Part shown: one piece after another, positions 1,351 to 61,500 of the stretch
Numbering within the stretch: the first letter of the stretch is position 1
Layout of the letters: the number at the start of each line of letters is the position of its first letter
Assembly: GCA_011033025.1 (NCBI GenBank)
Contig: WFMF01000417.1
Location: 95,834 to 159,833 of the forward strand
Origin: Beroe forskalii
Lineage: Eukaryota > Ctenophora > Nuda > Beroida > Beroidae
DNA: 64,000 nucleotides
Direction of reading: 5' to 3'
Notes under the pieces: model-generated
What the model saw: only the letters and a program-made list of their open reading frames with translations
Told to the model about the DNA's origin: nothing
The model's database searches: none
Position numbers and translations under genes: made by a program

Positions 1351-1356
1351 ACTTGT

Positions 1357-2793
1357 CCAGGTGCCAGTCTAATGCAGGTCTAGCGCCAGTTTAATGCTGG
1401 TCTTACGCCAGTCTAGTGCAGGTCTAATGCAGGTTTGGCGCCGGTTTTGTGCAGGTTTAGCGCCGGTTTAGCGCGGGGCCAGCGCCAGTCTAATGCAGGT
1501 CCTGTGCCACTCTAATGCAGGTCTAGCGCCGGTTTGGTGCAGGTCCAGCGCCGGTTGAGCGCGGGTACAGCGCTGGTGCAATGCAGGTCTAGCGCCGGTT
1601 TAATGCAGGTCTTGTGCCAGTCTAGTGCCACTCTAATGCAGGTCTAGCGCCGGTTTGGTGCAGGTCCAGCGCTGGTTTAGCGCGGGTGCAGCGCTGGTCC
1701 AATGCACCTCGGATGCTATCTCAATATTACTTGTGCATTTCATACAGATTTGGCGCCGATTAAATTATGCAGGTTTGACGTCTTTTCATGAATGTTTGGC
1801 GCTGTTTTAATGCAGGTGCAACGCCATTCCAATACGGGTTTGGCGCCGGTTTCATGCAGGTTTAGCATGTTCAATTCTATGCCCCATGACTCTTCATAAT
1901 AATAATAAATAATGGTTACCGGTGGTAACTAACGTACTTCATCATTGTTACCGGTGGTAACTAACATACGTTACCATGGTTACCGATGGTAACTTACGTA
2001 CATAACCATGGTTATCTGCGGTAACTGACGAACGTTACCATGGTTACCGGTGGTTAATAACGTACGTTACCATGGTTACCGACCTGGTAACTAACGTGGG
2101 TTACCATGGTTACCGATGGTAGCTAACGTACGTTACCATGGTTACCGGTGGTAACTTAGGTGGGTTACCATGGTTACTAATGGTAATTAACGTGGGTTAT
2201 CATGGTTAACGGTGGTCACTGGTCACTAACGTAATAACGTATGTTACTATGGTTACCGATGGGAGCTAACGGACGTTACCATGGTTTATACCGGTGGTCC
2301 CTAACGGACGTTACCATGGCTAACGGTGGTAACTAACCTGCATTGGAATGGCGTTGCACCTGCATTAAAACAGCGCCAAACATGCATGAAACGACGTCAA
2401 ACCTGCATAAAATGCATTAGTAATATTGAGATAGCATCCGAGGTGCATTGGACCAGCGCTGCACCCGCGCTAAACCAGCGCTGGACCTGCACCAAACCGG
2501 CGCTAGACCTGCATTAGAGTGGCACTAGACTGGCACAAGACCTGCATTAAACCGGCGCTAGACCTGCATTGCACCAGCGCTGTACCCGCGCTCAACCGGC
2601 GCTGGACCTGCACCAAACCGGCGCTAGACCTGCATTAGAGTGGCACAGGACCTGCATTAGACTGGCGCTGGCCCCACGCTAAACCGGCGCTAAACCTGCA
2701 CAAAACCGGCGCCAAAGCTGCATTAGACCTGCACTAGACTGGCGTTAGACCTGCATTAAACCGGCGCTAGACCTGCATTAGACTGGCGCCTGG
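1357..2793. mobile_element. fold-back element with tandem-repeat arms inserted in the LINE
   Basis: The left arm (1357-about 1840) and right arm (about 2336-2793) are reverse complements. The left arm begins CCAGGTGCCAGTCTAATGCA and the right arm ends with its near-complement GACTGGCGCCTGG. Both arms are built of degenerate units of about 11 bp, alternating GGTCTAGCGCC and GGTTTAATGCA. The centre (about 1911-2335) is a different tandem array of GGTTACCGGTGGTAAC-like units. No transposase is visible. A clean target duplication was not found, because the terminal similarity runs a few bases beyond CCAGG. The insertion splits the LINE reverse transcriptase, so it is younger than the LINE. Confidence 0.75.
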
Positions 2794-2915
2794 AAAAAGT
2801 GGCAAACGGATCTATGCCCGTTCTATCTGTTCTCGCACAGGCTAATCTCTCGTCATTATTATATTCATGTCTAAAGTGCATATAACAACTTTTTTCAACA
2901 TTTATATGGAGCTGA

Positions 2916-5501: not shown

Positions 5502-6013
5502 TACCTTCTAAAGCCCTCCTATAGTCCTATAGCTTCCATGCCCTCCACTAAAACGATTTGCAGACTCGGCCGATTGAGCTGAAAATTTGCACACCATCCA
5601 TGGACGACCTTAGAAAGACATACCACACTTCAGAATCCCGAAATCAGCCATTTTCTGTCTGTTATGGGGGGTAAAAATCGCGTTTTTCGGCTTAAAAACT
5701 GCCTTTTTTCACCCTTTATTGGGCGTAGATGTCTCATGGGTGGTCAAATAGAAGTGTATCTGGTCATAAATTATGCACCTGAAACCACTGAACCAATGAT
5801 ATTCGCCAGTTTTCCTTTGTTTTCCTGTAAAATCCAAAAAACCCTATTTTTACCTCTCCAAACAGTGATCCAGGACGTTCTTCATTAGTTCATTTCTGAG
5901 CCACCCAAGATCCGAAATCGAAAAACTTTGGCCGATTGAGCTGAAAATTTGCACGCCATCCATGGACGACCTAAGAAAGACATACCACACTTCGGAATCC
6001 CGAAATCAGCCAT
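5502..6013. repeat. 90-bp flanking repeat around the satellite
   Basis: A segment beginning GGCCGATTGAGCTGAAAATT and ending near CAGCCATTTTCT occurs at about 5568-5655 and again at about 5930-6016. A related copy lies beyond the satellite at about 9145-9240. It brackets the 335-bp array and looks like part of the same composite repeat. No coding potential is supported here. Confidence 0.7.
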
Positions 6014-9000
6014 TTTCTTAGTTGGATCAAACTGTACTGACCTGCAAAATTTCATGAGTTAACTAGTAAGTTTATTAGGACGACCCCCCCACCCCCGAGA
6101 TACTGATCAAAATTCAGAAAATACTTCGACACAATTGGACTTGAGGAAAACTCTGTGTATAAATGCATCATTATTTGGTTCTAGTACACTTTCTGGAAGG
6201 CAGTCACATGGGAAAAAGCAGTTGTCAGCCTTATTTTTGGTCCTTGTGGACAATTATAGACAAAAAAGTCCATTTTACGCCAAAAAATGGGGTTTTTAAG
6301 AGGCTGTAAATCGTGAAAATGGCCGAAATTCAAAATTCTGAAAGCAGCATTTTCTTAGTTGGATCAAACTGTACTGACCTGCAAAATTTCATGAGTTAAC
6401 TAGTAAGTTTATTAGGACGACCCCCCCCCCAAGATACTGATCAAAATTCAGAAAATACTTCGACACAATTGGACTTGGGAAAACTCTGTGTATAAATGCA
6501 TCATTATTTGGTTCTAGTACACTCTCTGGAAGGCAGTCACATGGGAAAAACAGTTTTCAGCCTTATTTTTGGTCCTTGTGGACGATTATAGATCAAAAAA
6601 GTCCATTTAGGCCCAAAAATGGGGTTTTAAGAGAGCTGTAAATCGTGAAAATGGCCCAAAATTAAAAATTCTGAAAGCAGCATTTTCTTAGTTGGATCAA
6701 ACTGTACTGACCTGCAAAATTTCATGAGTTAACTAGTAAGTTTTATTAGGAGGACCCCCCCCGCCCCCGAGATACTGATCAAAATTCAAGAAAATACTGC
6801 GACACAATTGGACTTGGGAAAACTCTGTGTATAAATGCATCATTATTTGGTTCTAGTACACTCTCTGGAAGGCAGTCACATGGGAAAAAGCAGTTTTCAG
6901 CCTTATTTTTGGTCCTTGTGGACAATTATAGACAAAAAAAGTCCATTTTAGGCCAAAAATGGGGTTTTTAAGAGGCTGTAAATCGTGAAAATGGCCGAAA
7001 TTCAAAATTCTGAAAGCAGCATTTTCTTAGTTGGATCAAACTGTACTGACCTGCAAAATTTCATGAGTTAACTAGTAAGTTTATTAGGACGACCCCCCCT
7101 CCCCCGAGATACTGATCAAAATTCAGAAAATACTTCGACACAATTGGACTTGGGGAAAACTCTGTGTATAAATGCATCATTATTTGGTTCTAGTACACTC
7201 TCTGGAAGGCAGTCACATGGGAAAAAGCAGTTTTCAGCCTTATTTTTGGTCCTTGTGGACAATCATAGACAAAAAAGTCCATTTTAGGCTAAAAATGGGG
7301 GTTTTTAAGAGGCTGTAAATCGTGAAAATGGCGAAATTCAAAATTCTGAAAGCAGCATTTTTCTTAGTTGGATCAAACTGTACTGACCTGCAAAATTTCA
7401 TGAGTTAACTAGTAAGTTTATTAGGACGACCCCCCCCCCCAAGATACTGATCAAAATTCAGAAAATACTCTGACACAATTGGACTTGGGGAAAACTCTGT
7501 GTATAAATGCATCATTATTTGGTTCTAGTACACTCTCTGGAAGGCAGTCACATGGGAAAAAGCAGTTTTCAGCCTTATTTTTGGTCCTTGTGGACAATCA
7601 TAGTCAAAAAAGTCCATTTTAGGCCCAAAAATGGGGTTTTAAGAGGCTGTAAATCGTGAAAATGGCCAAAATTCAAAATTCTGAAAGCAGCATTTTCTTA
7701 GTTGGATCAAACTGTACTGACCTGCAAAATTTCATGAGTTAACTAGTAAGTTTACTAGGAGGACCCCCAAGATACTGATCATAATTCAGGAAATACTCTG
7801 ACACAATTGGACTTGGGAAAAACTCTGTGTATAAATGCATCATTATTTGGTTCTAGTACACTCTCTGGAAGGCAGTCACATGGGAAAATGCAGTTTTCAG
7901 CCTTATTTTTGGTCCTTGTGGACAATCATAGTCAAAAAAGTCCATTTTAGGCCAAAAATGGGGTTTTTAAGAGGCTGTAAATCGTGAAAATGGCCGAAAT
8001 TCAAAATTCTGAAAGCAGCATTTTCTTAGTTGGATCAAACTGTACTGACCTGCAAAATTTCATGAGTTAACTAGTAAGTTTAATAGGAGGACCCCCCCCC
8101 GAGATACTGATCAAAATTCAGAAAATACTGCGACACAATCGGACTTGGGGAAAACTCTGTGTATAAATGCATCATTATTTGGTTCTAGTACACTCTCTGG
8201 AAGGCAGTCACATGGGAAAAAGCAGTTTTCAGCCTTATTTTTGGTCCTTGTGGACAATCATAGTCAAAAAAAGTCCATTTTAGGCCAAAAATGGGGTTTT
8301 AAGAGGCTGTAAATCGTGAAAATGGCCGAAATTCAAAATTCTGAAAGCAGCATTTTCTTAGTTGGATCAAACTGTACTGACCTGCAAAATTTCATGAGTT
8401 AACTAGTAAGTTTATTAATAGGACGACCCCCCCCCCCCAAAATACTGATCAAAATTCGGAAAATACTGCGACACAATCGGACTTGGGGAAAACTCTGTGT
8501 ATAAATGCATCATTATTTGGTTCTAGTACACTCTCTGGAAGGCAGTCACATGGGCAAAAGCAGTTTTCAGCCTTATTTTTGGTCCTTGTGGACAATCATA
8601 GTCAAAAAGTCCATTTTAGGCCCAAAAATGGGGGTTTAAGAGGCTGTAAATCGTGAAAATGGCCGAAATTCAAAATTCTGAAAGCAGCATTTTCTTAGTT
8701 GGATCAAACTGTACTGACCTGCAAAATTTCATGAGTTAACTAGTAAGTTTAATAGGACGACCCCCCCCCCTCCCCCGAGATACTGATCAAAATTCAGAAA
8801 ATACTGCGACACAATCGGACTTGGGGAAAACTCTGTGTATAAATGCATCATTATTTGGTTCTAGTACACTCTCTGGAAGGCAGTCACATGGGAAAAAGCA
8901 GTTTTCAGCCTTATTTTTGGTCCTTTCGGACAATCATAGTCAAAAAAGTCTATTTCAGGCCCAAAAATGGGGGTTTTTAACAGGCTGTAAATCGTGAAAA

Positions 9001-9110
9001 TGGCCGAAATTCAAAATTCTGAAAGCAACATTTTCTTAGTTGGATCAAACTGTACTGACCTGCAAAATTTCATGAGTTATCTAGTAAGTTTATTAGGACG
9101 AAAACCCCAA
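6014..9110. repeat. satellite of about 335-bp units, ten copies
   Basis: The landmark TTCTTAGTTGGATCAAACTG recurs at 6014, 6352, 6684, 7023, 7361, 7694, 8023, 8354, 8692 and 9033, giving periods of 329-341 bp. Units are nearly identical. Most length change is in a poly-C tract after TTAGGACGA (about 5-11 C) and in A or G runs. The high identity implies recent amplification or homogenisation. The array lies on the 5' side of the LINE coding region, in the position of a repeated LINE promoter. A lone, diverged, reverse-oriented copy at about 24686-24985 shows that the unit also exists outside the array. Confidence 0.95.
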
Positions 9111-12914: not shown

Positions 12915-15900
12915 GGTATGTCTCCCATGTAAACGGGGCTGAGTGACGTCATTTTTTGCCCTACTTTTTTTTCACGACACCACTTATTTATTCATGAAAT
13001 TTCAAACTTATTTTGTGCGCGCACAACGTAGTTTTCCCATATTTTTTTTTAATAATTCTAATTTTTATAGTTATTTAAGAACAAGAACGGAACCGGAACT
13101 TAGATCTTAGAACAAGATCGTAGAACTGGATTTAGATCTTAGAACAAGATCGTAGAACTGGATTTAGATCATAGAACAAGATCATGGAACCGGAACAAGA
13201 TCGTGGAACAGGATTTAGATCTTAGAACAAGATCATGGAGCCGGAACAAGATCGTGGAACAGGATCGTAGAACTGGATTTAGATCTTGGAACCGGATCAT
13301 GGAACCGGAACAAGATCGTGGAACAGGATCGTAGAACTGGATTTAGATCTTGGAACAGGATCATGGAGCCGAACAAGATCGTGGAACAGGATCGTAGAAC
13401 TGGATTTAGATCTTGGAACAGGATCATGGAACCGGAACAAGATCGTGGAACAGGATCGTGGAACTGGATGTAGATCTTGGAACAGGATCTAATTGGAACC
13501 GGAACAAGATCGTGGAACAGGATTTAGATCTTGGAACAGGATCGTGGAACTGGATGTAGATCTTGGAACAGGATCATGGAACTGGAACAAGATCTTGGAA
13601 CAGGATCGTGGAACTGGATGTAGATCTTGGAACAGGATCACGGAACTGGAACAAGATCAGAAGATCGTGGAACAGGATCGTAGAACTGGATTTAGATCTT
13701 GGAACAGGATCTTGGAACCGGAACAAGATCGTGGAACAGGATTTAGATCTTGGAACAGGATCGTGGAACTGGACGTAGATCTTGGAACAGGATCATGGAA
13801 CTGGAACAAGATCTTGGAACAGGATCGTGGAACTGGAACAAGATCTTGGAACAGGATCGTGGAACTGTATGTAGATCTTGGAACAGGATCGTAGATTTAG
13901 ATCTGGGAACAGGATCGTAGAACTGCATTTAGATCTTGGAACAGGATCATGGAACTGGGTTTAGATCTTGGAACAGGATCGTGGAAAAGGATCGTAGAAC
14001 TGGAACAAGATCTTGGAACAGGATCGAAGAACTGGATGTAGATCTTGGAACAGGATCACGGAACCGGAAAAAGATCGTGGAACAGGGTCGTAGAACTGGA
14101 TTTAGATCTTGGAACAGGATCGTGGAACTGGATTTAGAACTTGGAACAGGATCATGGAACCGGAACAAGATCGTGGAACAGGATCGTAGAACTGGATTTA
14201 GATCTTGGAACAGGATCTTGGAACTGGAACAAGATCGTGGAACAGGATTTGGAACTTGGAACAGAGATCTTGGAACAGATCTTGGAACTGGGAACAGGAT
14301 TTAGATCTTGGAACAGGATCGTGGAACTGGGACAAGATCTTGGAACAGGATCATGGAACTGGAACAAGATCTTGGAACAGAATCGTGGAACTGGAACAAG
14401 ATCTTGGAACAGGATCGTGGAACTGGATGTAGATCTTGGAACAGGATCGTGGATCTGGATTTAGATTTTGGAACAGGATCGTAGAACTGCATTTAGATCT
14501 TGGAACAGGATCATGGAACTGGGTTTAGATCTTGGAACAGGATCGTGGAAAAGGATCGTAGAACTGGAACAAGATCTTGGAACAGGATCGTGGAACTGGA
14601 TGTAGATCTTGGAACAGGATCATGGAACCGGAACAAGATCGTGGAACAGGGTCGTAGAACTGGATTTAGATCTTGGAACAGGATCGTGGAACTGGATTTA
14701 GATCTTGGAACAGGATCATGGAACCGGAACAAGATCGTGGAACAGGATCGTAGAACTGGATTTAGATCTTGGAACAGGATCTTGGAACTGGAACAAGATC
14801 GTGGAACAGAATGTAGATCTTGGAACAGGATCATGGAACTGGAACAAGATCTTGGAACAGGACCGTAGAACTGGATTTAGATCTTGGAACAGGATCATGG
14901 AACCGGAACAAGATCGTGGAACAGGATCGTAGAACTGGATTTAGATCTTGGAACAGGATCATGGAGCCGGAACAAGATCGTGGAACAGGATCGTAGAACT
15001 GGATTTAGATCTAGGAACAGGATTGTAGAACATAGCTCACTAGATCGTGGAACATAGATCAATAGATCGTAGCACACTAGAACAAGATCATGGAACCGGA
15101 ACAAGATCGTGGAACAGGATCGTAGAACTGGATTTAGATCTTGGAACAGGATCGTGGAACTGGATTTAGATCTTATAGAACATAGCTCACTACATCTTAG
15201 ATCGTGGAACATAGATCAATAGATCGTAGCTGGATTTAGATCTAGAAACAGCTGATAGTGGAACTGAATTTAGATCTTAGAACATAGCCCACTAGATCGT
15301 GGAACATAGATCAATAGATCGTAGCTCACTAGAACAAGATCATGGAACCGGAACAGGATCGTATTACTGGATTAGGATTTAGATCTTGGAACAGGATCGT
15401 GGAACTGAATTTAGAATTAGATCTTAGACCATAGCTCACTAGATCATAGATCGTGGAACCGGAGAAGGATCGTAGAACTGGATTTAGATCTTGGAACAGG
15501 ATCGTGGAACTGGATTTAGATCTTAGAACATAGCTCACTAGATCATAGATCGTGGAAGTGGAACATATATCAATAGATCGTAGCTCACTAGAACATTATT
15601 ATGGAACCGGAACAGGATCTTGGAACAGGATCTCGGAACCGGGACAAGATCATGGAACAGGATCGTGGAACTGGATTGACATCTTGGAACAGGATCATGG
15701 AACTGGAACAAGATCTTGGAACAGGATCGTGACACTGGATGAAGATCTTGGAACAGGATCACAGAACCGGAACAAGATCGTGGAACAGGATCGTAGAACT
15801 AGATTGAGATCTTGGGACAGGATTGTTTAACTGGATTTAGATTTTAGAACATAGCTCACTGGATCGTGGAACATAGGATCCTGGAACTGGATTTAGATCT

Positions 15901-18900
15901 AAGAACATAGCTCACTAGATCATAGATTGTGGAACATATATCAATAGATGATCTAATGGTATATCTACATCCAGTTCCACGATCCTGTTCCGGTTCCATG
16001 ATCTTGTTCTAGTGAGCTACGATCTATTGATCCATGTTCCACGATCTATGATCTAGTTACCTATGTTCTAAGATCTAATTCTAAATCCAGTTCCACGATC
16101 CTGTTCCAAGATCTAAATCTTTATCCAGTTCTACGAATTACGATCCTGTTCCGGTTCCATGATCTTGTTCTAGTGAGCTACGATCTATTGATCTATGTTC
16201 CACGATCTAGTGGGCTATGTTCTAAGATCCAAATCCAGTTCCACAATCCTGTCCCAAGATCTCAATCCAGTTCTAAGATCCTGTTCCACGATCTTGTTCC
16301 GGTTCCGTGATCCTGTTCCAAGATCTACATCCAGTTCCACGATCTTGTTCCAGTTCCATGATCCTAGTGTTCCATGATCTACATCCAGTTCCACGATCCT
16401 GTTCCTAGATCTAAATCCAGTTCTACGATCCAGTTCCGGTTCCATGATCTTGTTCTAGTGAGATACGATCTATTGATCCATGTTCCACGATCTATGATCT
16501 AGTGAGCTATGTTCTAACATCTAATTCTAAATCCAGTTCCACGATCCTGTTCCAAGATCTAAATCTTTATCCAGTTCTACGATCCTGTTCCGGTTCCATG
16601 ATCTTGTTGTAGTGAGCTACGATCTATTGATCTATGTTCCACGATCTAGTGGGCTATGTTCTAAGATCTAAATCCAGTTCCACAATCCTGTCCCAAGATC
16701 TCAATATAGTTCTACGATCCTGTTCCACGATCTTGTTCCAGTTCCGTGATCCTGTTCCAAGATCTACATCCAGTTCCACGATCTTGTTCCAGTTCCATGA
16801 TCCTGTTCCAAGATCTACATCCAGTTCCACGATCCTGTTCCACGATCTTGTTCCGGTACTGTGATCCTGTTCCAAGATCTACATCCAGTTCCATGATCCT
16901 GTTCCAAGATCTTGTTCCAGTTCCATGATCCTGTTCCAAGATCTACAATAGATCGTAGCTCACTAGAACAAGATCATGGAACCGGAACAGGATCGTGGAA
17001 CTGGATGTAGATATACCAATAGATCATCTATTGATATATGTTCCACGATCTATGATCTAGTGAGCTATGTTCTAAGATCTAAATCCAGTTCCACGATCCT
17101 ATGTTCCAAGATCCAGTGAGCTATGTTCTAAAATCTAAATCCAGTTCCACAATCCTGTCCCAAGATCTCAATCTAGTTCTACGATCCTGTTCCACGATCT
17201 TGTTCCGGTTCCGTGATCCTGTTCCAAGATCTTCATCCAGTTTCACGATCCTGTTCCAAGATCTTGTTCCAGTTCCATGATCCTGTTCCAACATATCAAT
17301 CCAGTTCCACGAACCTGTTCCACGATCTTGTCCCGGTTCCGTGATCCTGTTCCAAGGTACTGTTCCGGTTCCATAATAATGTTCTAGTGAGCTAGGATCT
17401 ATTGATATATGTTCCACGATCTATGATCTAGTGAGCTATGGTCTAAGATCTAAATCCAGTTCCACGATCCTGTTCCAAGATCTAAATCCAGTTCTACGAT
17501 CCTGTTCCGGTTCCACGATCTATGATCTAGTGAGCTATGTTCTAAGATCTAATTCTAAATCCAGTTCCATGATCCTGTTCCAAGATCTAAATCCTAATCC
17601 AGTAATACGATCCTGTTCCGGTTCCATAATCTTGTTCTAGTGAGCTACGATCTATTGATCTATGTTCCACGATCTAGTGGGCTATGTTCTAAGATCTAAA
17701 TCCAGTTCCACTATCAGCTGTTTCTAGATCTAAATCCAGCTACGATCTATTGATCTATGTTCCACGATCTAAGATGTAGTGAGCTATGTTCTATAAGATC
17801 TAAATCCAGTTCCACGATCCTGTTCCAAGATCTAAATCCAGGTCTACGATCCTGTTCCACGATCTTGTTCTGGTTCCATGATCTTGTTCTAGTGTGCTAC
17901 GATCTATTGATCTATGTTCCACGATCTAGTGTGCTATGTTCTACGATCCTGTTCCTAGATCTAAATCCAGTTCTACGATCCTGTTCCACGATCTTGTTCC
18001 GGCTCCATGATCCTGTTCCAAGATCTAAATCCAGTTCTAGTTCTACGATCCTGTTCCAAGATCTTGTAGTTGTTCCAGTTCCATGATCCTGTTCCAAGAT
18101 CTACATCCAGTTCCACGATCCTGTTCCAAGATCTAAATCCTGTTCCACGATCTTGTTCCGGTTCCAAGATCCTGTTCCAAGATCTAAATCCAGTTCTACG
18201 ATCCTGTTCCACGATCTTGTTCCGGTTCCATGATCCTGTTCAAAGATCTAAATCCAGTTCCACGATCCTGTTCCAAGATCTAAATCCAGTTCTACGACCC
18301 TGTTCCACGATCTTGTTCCGGTTCGGTGATCCTGTTCCAAGATCTACATCCAGTTCCACGATCCTGTTCCAAGATCTTGTTCCAGTTCCATGATCCTGTT
18401 CCAAGATCTAAATCCAGTTCTATGATCCTTTTCCACGATCCTGTTCCAAGATCTAAATCCAGTTCTACGATCCTGTTCCACGATCTTGTTCCGGTTCCGT
18501 GATCCTGTTCCAAGATCTACATCCAGTTCCACGATCCTGTTCCAAGATCTTGTTCCAGTTCCACGATCCTGTTCCAAGATCTTGTTCAAGTTCCATGATC
18601 CTGTTCCAAGATCTACATCCAGTTCCACGATCCTGTTCCAAGATCTAAATCCTGTTCCACGATCTTGTTCCGGTTCCAAGATCCTGTTCCATGATCTAAA
18701 TCCAGTTCTACGATCCTGTTCCACGATCTTGTTCCAGTTCCATGATCCTGTTCCAAGATCTACATCCAGTTCCGCGATCCTGTTCCGAGATCTAAATCCT
18801 GTTCCACGATCTTGTTCCGGTTCCAAGATCCTGTTCCAAGATCTAAATCCAGTTCTACGATCCTGTTCCACGATCTTGTTCCGGTTCCATGATCCTGTTC

Positions 18901-19378
18901 TAAGATCTAAATCCAGTTCTACGATCCTGTTCCACGATCTTGTTCCGGCTCCATGATCCTGTTCCAAGATCTAAATCCAGTTCTACGATCCTGTTCCACG
19001 ATCTTGTTCCGGTTCCATGATCCTGTTCTAAGATCTAAATCCAGTTCTACGATCCTGCTCCACGATCTTGTTCCCGTTCCATGATCTTGTTCTAAGATCT
19101 AAATCCAGTTCTACGATCTTGTTCTAAGATCTAAATCCAGTTCTATGATCTTGTTCTAAGATCTAAATCCAGTTCTACGATCTTGTTCTAAGATCTAAGT
19201 TCCGGTTCCGTTCTTGTTCTTAAATAACTATAAAAATTAAAATTATTTAAAAAATGGAAAACTATGTTGTGCGCGCACAAAATAAGTTTGAAATTTCATG
19301 AATAAATAAGTGGTGCCGTGAAAAAAAAGTAGGGCAAAAAATGACGTCACTCAGCCCCGTTTACATGGGAGACATACC
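12915..19378. mobile_element. 6.46 kb giant fold-back (inverted repeat) element
   Basis: The outer ends are reverse complements: GGTATGTCTCCCATGTAAAC at 12915 and its complement ending at 19378. About 165 bp of non-repetitive sequence follows on each side (CTGAGTGACGTCA, GTGCGCGCACAACGTAG, ATAGTTATTTAAGAACAAG) at very high identity. Inside are arrays of 13-19 bp units (GGAACAGGATCGT, GGAACTGGATTTAGATCTT) that run forward at about 13080-15950 and reversed at about 15960-19210. A short forward patch at about 16946-17015 flips orientation again. The 8-bp direct repeat CTGGTTAG lies at 12907-12914 and 19379-19386, a likely target duplication. No transposase is present. All long open frames here are products of the repeat. 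Confidence 0.85.
12944..12951. promoter_or_regulatory. palindromic CRE (TGACGTCA) in the element terminus
   Basis: TGACGTCA, the full CREB/ATF half-site palindrome, occurs here and at the mirror position 19342-19349. It also occurs at 12614-12621 and 12782-12789 in the related short element. It is a fixed part of this repeat family's termini. Binding is not shown by the sequence. Confidence 0.5.
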
Positions 19379-58500: not shown

Positions 58501-61500
58501 TTACCAATACAAGAGATAGTGATGAAAACTTGACATAAAAAAACCATTTTGTAAAAAATTGAACTTCATTTAAATCCATGATGTGGCTTTTTAGCATAGA
58601 AAAATGACCTGTTTGAGCACACCTGTTCCAATGATTATGTACAACTTTTCCAGAAGTAAGTTGGTACTCACATACTCAAATGGAGACTATAGGTGAAGTA
58701 GTACCACTCTAGTGTACAACCGTAAGACAATAGCTGTAGATGCTAGATTATCAGGTAATTTGGTAATCTGTCGACGGACAGTTACCGGTCGGTTAACGGT
58801 CGGTTATCGGTCGGTTACCGGTCAGTTAACGGTCGGTTAACGGACGGTTAACGGACGGTTACCGCCCACGGACAGTTACCGGTCGGTTAACGGACACTTA
58901 ACGGACGGACAGTTACCGGTCGGTTACCGGTCACTTAACGGTCGGTTAACGGACGGTTACCGCCCACAGACAGTTACCGGTCCTTTAACGGTCGGTTAAC
59001 GGTCGGTTAACGGACGGTTACCGCCCACGGGCAGTTACTGGTCGGTTAACGTACGGTTACCGACCACGGAGAGTTAACGGTCGGTTACCGGTCACTTAAC
59101 GGTCGGTTAACGCCCACGAGCAGTTACCGGTCGGTTACCGGTCGGTTAACGGTCACTTAACGGTCGGTTAACGGTCGGTTAACGGACGGTTACCGCCCAC
59201 GGACAGTTACCGGTCATTTAACGGTCGGTTAACGAACGGTTACCGCTCAAGGTCAGTTACTGGTCGCTAAAGGCCGTTTCAAGCATCTCAATTGTTTTTT
59301 CCAGACCCTCAAACCCCCTCTCTTCAGTCAGCAATTGCAAACCCTCTCTCCATTCGGATGCTACATGATTATGTAATTAGTTAAAAACCAATTTTAATGC
59401 TTTAATGGCACTTATTAGATGATGATGTATAATATATTTCCATTGACAAACACTTATAAATATAATATATGGCACACCGTTTAACTGATGAGTAAGAAAT
59501 TGCCATCCGTTTATCATGGGTAAGTGAATGTTGCACTAAATAGGAAATTTTAACATTTAAATTATATGAATTAGCCCCTCCATTACGCCGCATCAGAGCA
59601 TCAGCTAATAAAACAAAGTTTAAATCAATTATACGGTAAAATACGATATTATATAACTTAATCAAAAATTCGTCTCATCAGTTCAGGGATCTCCTTGCTG
59701 AAGTTCTGTATGATGGAAGGACCAGTTCTGGTAAGGTTTCGCTTCTTCACCCACATGAATACACACAGAGCAATCGCCATGCTAGAGGAGTTTGATCGGC
59801 TTTGTCCAGTTCCAAGCCGCCTGTGCTTCTTGGCATGAAACCACATGCCCTCACAGGTGTTGGTGTGTTCAACAGTGAGTAGGTCCACGAAGCCTCTTCT
59901 TTGGTTGACCACCAGACGGATGAAGCCGTGATGAGAAAGGGAGCCGTCTGTCAGGATGACAGTTCCTGCTTAAACTTACTTCTTGATGAGACGGATGAGT
60001 GTGTATTTATCTCGCCTGTTCCTGGACACTCAACAAGGAAACAGTCCCCGCTGTTCCGACAGCAACCACCAAGCACCCACTTCCCCTTAACACGTCGTCC
60101 CCGAGTATACTTCCTCTTCCCGAATTTGGATTCGCATCAACCTCCGGGACATGTCATGTACTCGTAGTAGAACTGAAGAGATGAGAACTGCACTGACGAT
60201 TAAAGGAAGTTATGAAGCTGAAAGGGTTTCTCTGGCCTCTGCTCCGGAAAAGGTGCTATTTTTTAATGATACTAACCATTGCTACAAAAAAATCCTCGTG
60301 AAATCCCCATGTTCCTATCGTGAGATTTCACACCTTCATGTTATGGCACAGCGACATTACTAGCTATATACGTGATGAAATTGGTATTTCCCACCTTACT
60401 AAACTAGAGGTTACTTCTCGTTTAGTTTTTATTTTATTTGTAAACGATAGTTTATCAATAAGATAATAATATGCTAGTTAATTAATATATAACGCATTCA
60501 ATTGATTGTGACACTAACCGGCCGTTAAGTGACCGGTCACTGACCGTTAACCGACCGGTTACTGCCCGTGGGCGGTAACCGACCGTTAACCGACCGTTAA
60601 GTGACCGGCAACCGACCGTTAACCGACCGGTAACTGTCCGTGGGCGGTAACCGTCCGTTAACCGGCCGTTAAGTGACCGGTAACCGACCGTTAACCGACC
60701 GGTAACTGTCCGTGGGCGGTAACCGTCCGTTAACCGACCGTTAAGTGACCGTTAACCGACCGGTAACCGACCGGTAACTGTCCGTCCGTTAAGTATCCGT
60801 CAACCGACCGGTAACTGTCCGTGGGCGGTAACCGTCCGTCAACCGACCGTTAACCGACCGTTAAGTGACCGTTAAGTGGTCGGTAACCGACCGGTTACCG
60901 ACCGGTAACTGTCCGTCGACAGATTACCAAGTTGCCGATTATCACATACTAAGATATTTACATCTGGGTTTCATCTAATCAATGAACGATGCAGTAAATT
61001 GAGTGGAAGGAAAGGTATCTGTGTCTCATGAAGTGAACAACCAGTTGAGCAGTTGGAATAAACTAATGATTCGAACTCAATGTGCTGTGAATTAATTAGT
61101 TCATTAAAACTCTATTAAAAAATAAGCTATCCTAGCTCAATGACAGTCATAGAAGTATATTTGAGCCTTTATTGAGGTGTACGCTTGTCATAATTCTATC
61201 ATCATCTTCATATTTATTCTGAGCTTTTGATCTTGCTTACTCTGAACTTCTGAACTTCAAATGTTAATCTACGGAACCTCCATAAACCAGCCAGCAATGC
61301 TCTTATCATTTATGATGTATCAAAACACCCACCCAATGTCCATCTGAAACTCCTCACTACCTCCATTCTTACCTCTCACTTCCCCTCTAATTCACTGAAT
61401 GATTTCCCCTCTCTACTACTTAAAACCCTACTCAACCTGACCAGTCGAATGATGATTCTCCCAGTCTACCCCTCACAACTTCAATACTCAGCCCCAAACC

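What the first reader, a model, noticed from the sequence alone, without database searches (positions are those of the whole stretch)
58754..60936. Merlin transposon whose inverted termini have become tandem-repeat arrays
The element has a perfect 8-bp target duplication (GATTATCA) and a recognisable IS1595-type transposase with DDE residues. Its terminal inverted repeats are about 420-520 bp long and made of 10-11 bp units (GGTCGGTTAAC/ACC). Merlin elements are usually described with short simple termini, so a fold-back architecture with repeat-built arms, like Drosophila FB or Galileo, is unusual for this superfamily. The repeat units could be multiple transposase-binding sites (inference).
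Basis: partly seen in the sequence, partly recalled or inferred. Interest (0 to 1): 0.72.

Follow-up and report, generated by a model that had tools for sequence, protein, structure and literature searches.

The report
Merlin transposons ending in repeat arrays

Summary
Confirmed, and wider than reported. Window 58754-60936 is a 2183-bp foldback transposon with an 8-bp target duplication; its arms (about 517 and 422 bp) are mainly 11-bp units plus a 6-bp spacer. The genome holds 122 matching ends (reversed-pattern control: 0). Of 30 two-ended copies, 24 have perfect duplications. Arm lengths differ by whole units (74% of gaps; interior 18%).

The interior is a frame-broken Merlin (IS1595-type) transposase remnant. 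In the 35 of 39 sequences with nucleotide homology to the intact ORF, it starts at codon 143-145, so the family is non-autonomous. An intact 312-aa ORF lies beside the same array elsewhere.

The design recurs: 17 of 18 Merlin transposase loci examined (of 35) have short-unit arrays beside them. Eight families (seven with a transposase locus) share a 22-bp tip, GGYARY-N11-YCGAY, followed by arrays whose unit differs by family. Elements of 111 and 132 bp with perfect duplications are little more than tips plus array-like units.

Best reading: a foldback lineage of Merlin working like Galileo, tip as core site, array as repeated secondary transposase sites (inferred; the array is not more conserved than the interior). 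New variant of a known kind.

The parts
58746..58753 (.). left target-site duplication GATTATCA
58754..58775 (+). left tip, GGTAATTTGGTAATCTGTCGAC (GGYARY-N11-YCGAY)
58754..59270 (+). left arm (TIR): tip plus array of 11-bp units GGWCRGTTAMC with 6-bp GCCCAC spacers; inner limit approximate
59533..60155 (-). Merlin transposase remnant: homologous from codon 143 to beyond the stop of the intact ORF in L059, 87% identical, frame broken
60199..60485 (+). segment 83% identical to the region upstream of the intact ORF, inverted relative to the transposase remnant
60515..60936 (-). right arm (TIR): same 11-bp units in inverted orientation; inner limit approximate
60915..60936 (-). right tip, read inward GGCAACTTGGTAATCTGTCGAC
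60937..60944 (.). right target-site duplication GATTATCA

Best explanation
Shown: the window element is a non-autonomous member of a Merlin (IS1595-type DDE) family whose terminal inverted repeats are a 22-bp tip plus an array of 11-bp units. The same plan (tip GGYARY-N11-YCGAY, then an array of short units, mirrored at the other end) is shared by eight families of this genome with different unit sequences; seven of them have a transposase locus in hand. Inferred: the window family spread recently from an internally deleted founder, moved in trans by a relative with an intact ORF. The transposase cuts and joins at the tip, which holds two boxes at fixed spacing. The array gives many secondary contacts, about one per helical turn, for the N-terminal domain or a transposase multimer, raising end recognition by avidity as proposed for Galileo. 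Arrays gain and lose whole units by slippage or unequal exchange, so arm length drifts while phase is kept.
For: 8-bp duplications perfect in 24 of 30 two-ended copies. 122 ends, 0 in the reversed-pattern control. Arm gaps of 8 bp or more, in pairwise comparisons of 23 copies, are 11n or 11n+6 in 1077 of 1448, against 18% of 347 in interiors and 2/11 by chance. Homology to the CDS starts at base 428-434 in each of the 35 sequences, of 39 searched, that match it. Intact 312-aa ORF with PF12762 beside the same array in L059. Short-unit arrays at 17 of 18 transposase loci examined, of 35 matches in the genome. Tip matches at 14 of those 18. GGCAGT-N11-CCGAC: 439 matches, control 28. Of 18 distinct tips in fetched loci, 16 are followed by an array (autocorrelation 0.5 or more), against 22 of 3000 random stretches. 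Outside the elements 4 of 65 tandem arrays have smallest period 10-12, and two of those four proved to be arms of family K. L070 (111 bp) and L071 (132 bp), with perfect duplications, are little more than tips and array-like units. Galileo precedent: terminal part conserved between families, family-specific repetitive arm, extra THAP sites bound in vitro (PMC3688188).
Against: The array next to the tip is not more conserved between copies than the interior: median pairwise divergence 3.2% against 2.7%, mean 4.1-4.5% against 2.9% (28 copies; the array is five times richer in CpG; only the first 33 bp are lower, mean 0.9-1.1%, partly by selection of copies through that end). Arms do not match better within a copy than between copies (p 0.89). 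Tips of D and K differ at 2 of 22 bases but are followed by different arrays. L012, with an intact ORF, has neither tip nor array within 1.5 kb; L062, L063 and L066 have arrays but no tip match in the stretch held. 13 of 65 arrays outside the elements have smallest period 20-22, so the 21-bp period of family D is not unusual here. L069 (99 bp, two tips) has no array and no matching duplication; L072 and L017 have arrays without a matching duplication, as has G. L059 does not sit between matching duplications. At protein level three copies (L042, L051, L055) align from residue 118-119, so the shared breakpoint may not hold for all. No binding data exist.
Confidence: 0.55

Rival explanations
1. 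Passive expansion: the arrays are minisatellites that grew by slippage at transposon ends in a minisatellite-rich genome and do nothing for transposition; copies carry them because the founder did.
For: Outer array no more conserved than the interior. Unit sequences differ between families. Whole-unit gains and losses are what slippage gives. Internal tandem repeats are described in other Merlin elements, Repbase entries included (PMC8101967, passages).
Against: Arrays sit directly inside the tip on both sides in eight families whose transposases fall to 34-36% identity (A against D), mostly with period 11-12, while 4 of 65 arrays outside the elements have smallest period 10-12. The 111- and 132-bp elements kept array-like units and lost nearly everything else.
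Confidence: 0.25
2. Phase or structure rather than sequence: the array works by repeated one-turn spacing (bendability, nucleosome exclusion, hairpins, or weak non-specific multimer binding), so the unit sequence may change as long as the spacing is kept.
For: Spacing is kept while sequence is not. D and K tips agree at 20 of 22 positions but the arrays differ, and 0 of 23 listed K-like tips has a PF12762 match within 4 kb against 5 of 17 D-like tips, those five lying at three transposase loci, so K may be moved by D transposase. Arms of B, D, I and K hold palindromes of 8 bp or more above column-permuted controls (uncorrected, 14 arms tested; the control permutes at period 11, which does not fit B, D or K).
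Against: Such palindromes are not enriched in A, C, E, F, G or J. The period is 12 in B and K and 21 in D. L009 (family D) and K units share the core GGAATTCC, so these arrays may be related. Only the first 100 of 439 tips were listed, and tips between D and K are hard to assign.
Confidence: 0.2

Closest known systems
Merlin superfamily (IS1595/IS1016-related eukaryotic DNA transposons)
   Same: PF12762 transposase, 8-bp target duplications, ends beginning GG (criteria from PMC8101967)
   Different: TIRs reported in the parts I read are short (23-29 bp, 39 bp) and tandem repeats are called internal; here arms of hundreds of bp are tip plus array. That paper's table on Repbase Merlin repeats (S1 Table) could not be read, so array-built TIRs may exist there unnoted.
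Galileo (P superfamily, Drosophila)
   Same: Long internally repetitive TIRs, terminal part conserved between subfamilies, family-specific inner part, extra transposase sites bound in vitro (PMC3688188: abstract, sections 12 and 13)
   Different: P-type THAP transposase against Merlin/IS1595 here; a few long direct repeats, not 11-bp units.
Foldback elements FB, Phantom/Tm1, Tetris; sea urchin TU elements
   Same: Arms with tandem repeats; Tetris is non-autonomous with 8-10 bp duplications (PMC4079207, passages). FB and TU details are recalled.
   Different: Mostly placed in Mutator, or unclassified; units are longer (220 bp in Tetris; 31 bp in FB and 15 bp in TU, recalled).

Membership tests
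Merlin superfamily | DDE_Tnp_IS1595 (PF12762) transposase | tested here: met
   ORFs of L059, L060, L011, L012 and L063 score 46-71 bits, cut-off 27. The window fragment alone does not match, but is 97% (150-186) and 77% (185-312) identical to L059.
Merlin superfamily | 8-9 bp target-site duplication | tested here: met
   Family A: 24 of 30 two-ended copies. Also B (L013, L014, L070, L071, L073), C (L015), D (L011+L057), E (L058, L064), F (L075), K (L044, L074). Not met in L060 (G), L017, L069, L072.
Merlin superfamily | TIR begins with GG | tested here: met
   criterion from PMC8101967. One end of L020 reads TG.
Merlin superfamily | family K: transposase of its own | tested here: inconclusive
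   K is placed here by tip, array and duplication only; no PF12762 match near the 23 listed K-like tips.
Merlin superfamily | window copy itself encodes an intact transposase | tested here: not met
   a non-autonomous member
Galileo / P superfamily | long, internally repetitive TIRs | tested here: met
Galileo / P superfamily | THAP / P-element transposase | tested here: not met
   PF12762 is the only family above its curated cut-off in the five related transposase ORFs scanned. It works like Galileo but is not a member.
Mutator-type foldback (FB, Phantom) | MULE transposase, 9-bp duplication (criteria recalled) | tested here: not met
   PF12762 and 8-bp duplications instead
Galileo-like end recognition | array units bound by the transposase | not testable with these tools
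   needs EMSA or footprinting

The most novel reading that the evidence does not exclude
A Merlin lineage has a two-part end code: a fixed bipartite 22-bp tip read by sequence, plus an array read by one-turn spacing rather than sequence. The array sequence can then be exchanged (families D and K have nearly the same tips and different arrays), and new families arise by array replacement while being moved by the same transposase.
Probability: 0.2. Interest if true: 0.8.

Novelty: new variant of a known kind. Interest (0 to 1): 0.62.

Why it matters
Most foldback elements are placed in Mutator, with exceptions such as Galileo in the P superfamily (PMC4079207, passages), and the role of the long repeats is called uncertain (PMC3688188 section 13). 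Here one genome holds eight families with the same tip, the same array plan and different units, an intact ORF beside the window family's array, and natural elements of 111-132 bp. That lets tip, unit sequence, spacing and copy number be separated in binding and excision tests. Such arms may also seed satellites (proposed for Tetris) and promote inversions (Galileo, abstract).

Tried and rejected
Nested insertion of an unrelated transposase: rejected; 35 of 39 sequences share the remnant with the same nucleotide start, and an intact relative has the same array. Inter-arm gene conversion in family A: no signal (p 0.89); in B and E arms are alike within and between copies (93-100%), so no clear signal either. 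Stronger conservation of the array than of the interior: not found. Universal palindromic units: rejected. A separate family H (L062, 10-bp units on one side): dropped, because its other side carries family E sequence. In one search I left out seven of the 30 two-ended copies (swapped ends or insertions), three arms (two left, one right) were cut short by my arm-length rule, and the pairs compared are not independent. One search uses element limits that I set by hand. Relatives elsewhere: viral contigs gave none of 28 candidate stretches, genome contigs one weak bacterial locus of 49 (L068); nothing was learned about other eukaryotes. Other transposon types as controls: the one PIF/Harbinger stretch read (3.1 kb, L067) has no 10-12 bp array, but its ends were not determined. 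The Transposase_1 search rang nowhere, controls included, so it says nothing. The host was not identified.

Full report
Observation. Window 58754-60936 is bounded by GATTATCA on both sides. The outer 209 nt of the two arms are 90% complementary. Tandem Repeats Finder gives period 11 in both arms, with super-units such as 50, 61 and 72 bp. Autocorrelation at lag 11 is 0.66 (left) and 0.67 (right) against a background of 0.25. Cutting the arms of 30 copies at the unit's core gives 2421 tokens: 1811 of exactly 11 nt, 298 of 6 nt (294 of them GCCCAC) and 163 of 22 nt. The unit is 11 bp (GGWCRGTTAMC) with a 6-bp spacer.

Copies in the host genome. A search with the left 101 bp scored 40 of 147 candidates. 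I fetched 38 loci holding the 39 others. With the window this gives 30 copies with both ends in hand. Of these 24 have a perfect 8-bp duplication and 6 do not (L021, L026, L040, L047, L049, L052). In the other 9 loci no two facing ends were paired within the fetched piece. The 33-bp end with up to 3 mismatches occurs 122 times (60 forward, 62 reverse), against none for the pattern read backwards; those ends were not all checked for arrays. Interiors differ by a median of 2.7% (28 copies), which suggests recent spread. Gaps of 8 bp or more between arms of 23 copies are 11n or 11n+6 long in 1077 of 1448 pairwise cases; between interiors it is 18% of 347, which is chance.

What the interior is. 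tblastn with the 312-aa ORF of locus L059 (PF12762, 46 bits) matches the window on the minus strand over residues 150-312 in two frames. At the nucleotide level homology starts at codon 143. Of 39 sequences searched (38 loci and the window), 35 match the CDS, each starting at base 428-434. At protein level L042, L051 and L055 align from residue 118-119; L051 and L055 belong to a diverged subfamily with interiors about 80-83% identical to the window's. So most copies fit one internally deleted founder, and the rest are uncertain. L059 has the same 11-bp array beside its intact ORF. The other tip and array lie about 10.8 kb away (L061) with a piggyBac-type match in between (C358:126794). Its flanks are not a matching duplication.

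The design is lineage-wide. PF12762 gives 35 matches in the genome. I examined 18: the ten best-scoring (L009-L018) and eight chosen mostly for long open frames (L058-L060, L062-L066). Beside 17 of 18 lie arrays of 10-12 bp or 21-bp units. L012 has none within 1.5 kb. The tip motif is present at 14 of 18; L012, L062, L063 and L066 lack it in the stretch held. Families with both tips in hand: A (window; GGTCGGTTAAC), B (L013, L014, L017; CCGGCTAGCCGG), C (L015; GGAACTTAGTC), D (L011 with its neighbour L057; 21-bp units), E (L058, L064; GGCGGACCTAA), F (L075; CTCCGAGACTC; transposase in L016), G (L060; GCACACCTGGG) and K (L044, L074; CGCGGAATTCCG; no transposase seen). Perfect 8-bp duplications were seen in at least one element of each except G; L017 of family B lacks one. 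L063 (CTTCCCGGACC) and L066 (ACGCCAGTATC) have arrays without a tip in the fetched stretch. Transposases of A and D are 34-36% identical, of A and G 64%.

The tip. The eight families share GGYARY-N11-YCGAY at fixed spacing, directly followed by the array. Two further chance-like matches occur in the 64-kb window. GGCAGT-N11-CCGAC occurs 439 times in the genome against 28 for the control. Among 18 distinct such tips in the fetched loci, 16 are followed within 140 bp by a periodic array (autocorrelation 0.5 or more at the best lag), against 22 of 3000 random stretches of the window. Upstream only L013, which sits in a minisatellite, reaches 0.5 where it could be measured. These tips are not independent: several belong to one element, 16 of 18 lie in loci fetched for their transposase, and the motif was drawn from such elements. 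The K element in L044, with the window family inserted inside it and its own duplication CTCGACTC, came to light by the motif alone.

Background. Outside the elements, with limits set by hand, 65 tandem arrays were found. Four have a smallest period of 10-12 and 13 have 20-22. Two of the four are the K arms. So 10-12 bp arrays are rare outside the elements, while the 21-bp period of family D is not distinctive. One PIF/Harbinger stretch shows no 10-12 bp array, with its ends not determined; that control is a single case.

Minimal elements. Seven short stretches were picked from 14 convergent tip pairs among the first 100 listed tips. L070 (111 bp) and L071 (132 bp), with perfect duplications, are by eye little more than two tips and array-like units. 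L073 (333 bp) has a perfect duplication and array on both sides. L072 (177 bp) has array but no matching duplication. L069 (99 bp) has neither. L074 (1052 bp, K) and L075 (1434 bp, F) have perfect duplications and arrays on both sides.

Mechanism. I think the tip is the core transposase site and the array a set of secondary sites about one helical turn apart; this step is inferred. For it: position, symmetry, spacing, the minimal elements, and the Galileo precedent (PMC3688188: abstract, sections 12 and 13). The N-terminal part of the transposase diverges faster than the C-terminal part (A against G 57% and 70%; D against F 58% and 81%), which is compatible but common. Against it: within family A the array is not more conserved than the interior, and arms show no within-copy matching. 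Families D and K have tips differing at 2 of 22 positions but different arrays, with 0 of 23 listed K-like tips near a PF12762 match against 5 of 17 D-like ones, which lie at three loci (first 100 of 439 tips). The last point favours spacing over sequence, but L009 of family D and K share a GGAATTCC core, so the two arrays may be related.

Prior work. PMC8101967 (abstract; part 1 of 2 of sections 10 and 11; passages) reports internal tandem repeats, in Repbase Merlin entries too, and highly imperfect TIRs, with GG starts and 8-9 bp duplications. What I read does not describe array-built TIRs; its supplement could not be read. Nine paper searches showed no Merlin foldback by title or abstract start in their listings. 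One review holding both words (PMC10794571) was not opened. The library is open-access only and Repbase was not available. PMC4079207 (passages) says foldbacks mostly fall in Mutator, with exceptions. I therefore call this a new variant of a known kind.

Noticed in passing
window 12915-19378: A 6.46-kb foldback with 8-bp flanks CTGGTTAG, identical 24-bp ends starting GGTATGTCTCCC, and arms of 2-3 kb made of 13/19/32-bp units. Its end gave 41 matches from the 40 scored of 268 candidates genome-wide, its own two ends included. It lacks the Merlin tip motif.
   Followed up: partly
window 1351-2800: A third foldback with inverted arrays of 11-bp units (GTGCCGGTCTA) around a 32-bp-unit array, lying between ORFs that look reverse-transcriptase-like by eye; no tip motif or duplication found.
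   Followed up: partly
L011 2391-3107: A second open frame of 238 aa (stop to stop), proline-rich with a basic stretch, downstream of the transposase inside a family D element with matching 8-bp duplications; no Pfam match at E<=0.01.
   Followed up: partly
L051 and L052: Copies whose tip types are swapped relative to the interior and whose interior is about 80-88% identical to the window's: a diverged subfamily or inversion between the arms.
   Followed up: no
L013 712-886 and 3233-3330: A family B Merlin inserted in a minisatellite with units of about 43 bp.
   Followed up: no
window 6002-9101: Tandem array of about nine 337-bp units, 94% matches.
   Followed up: no
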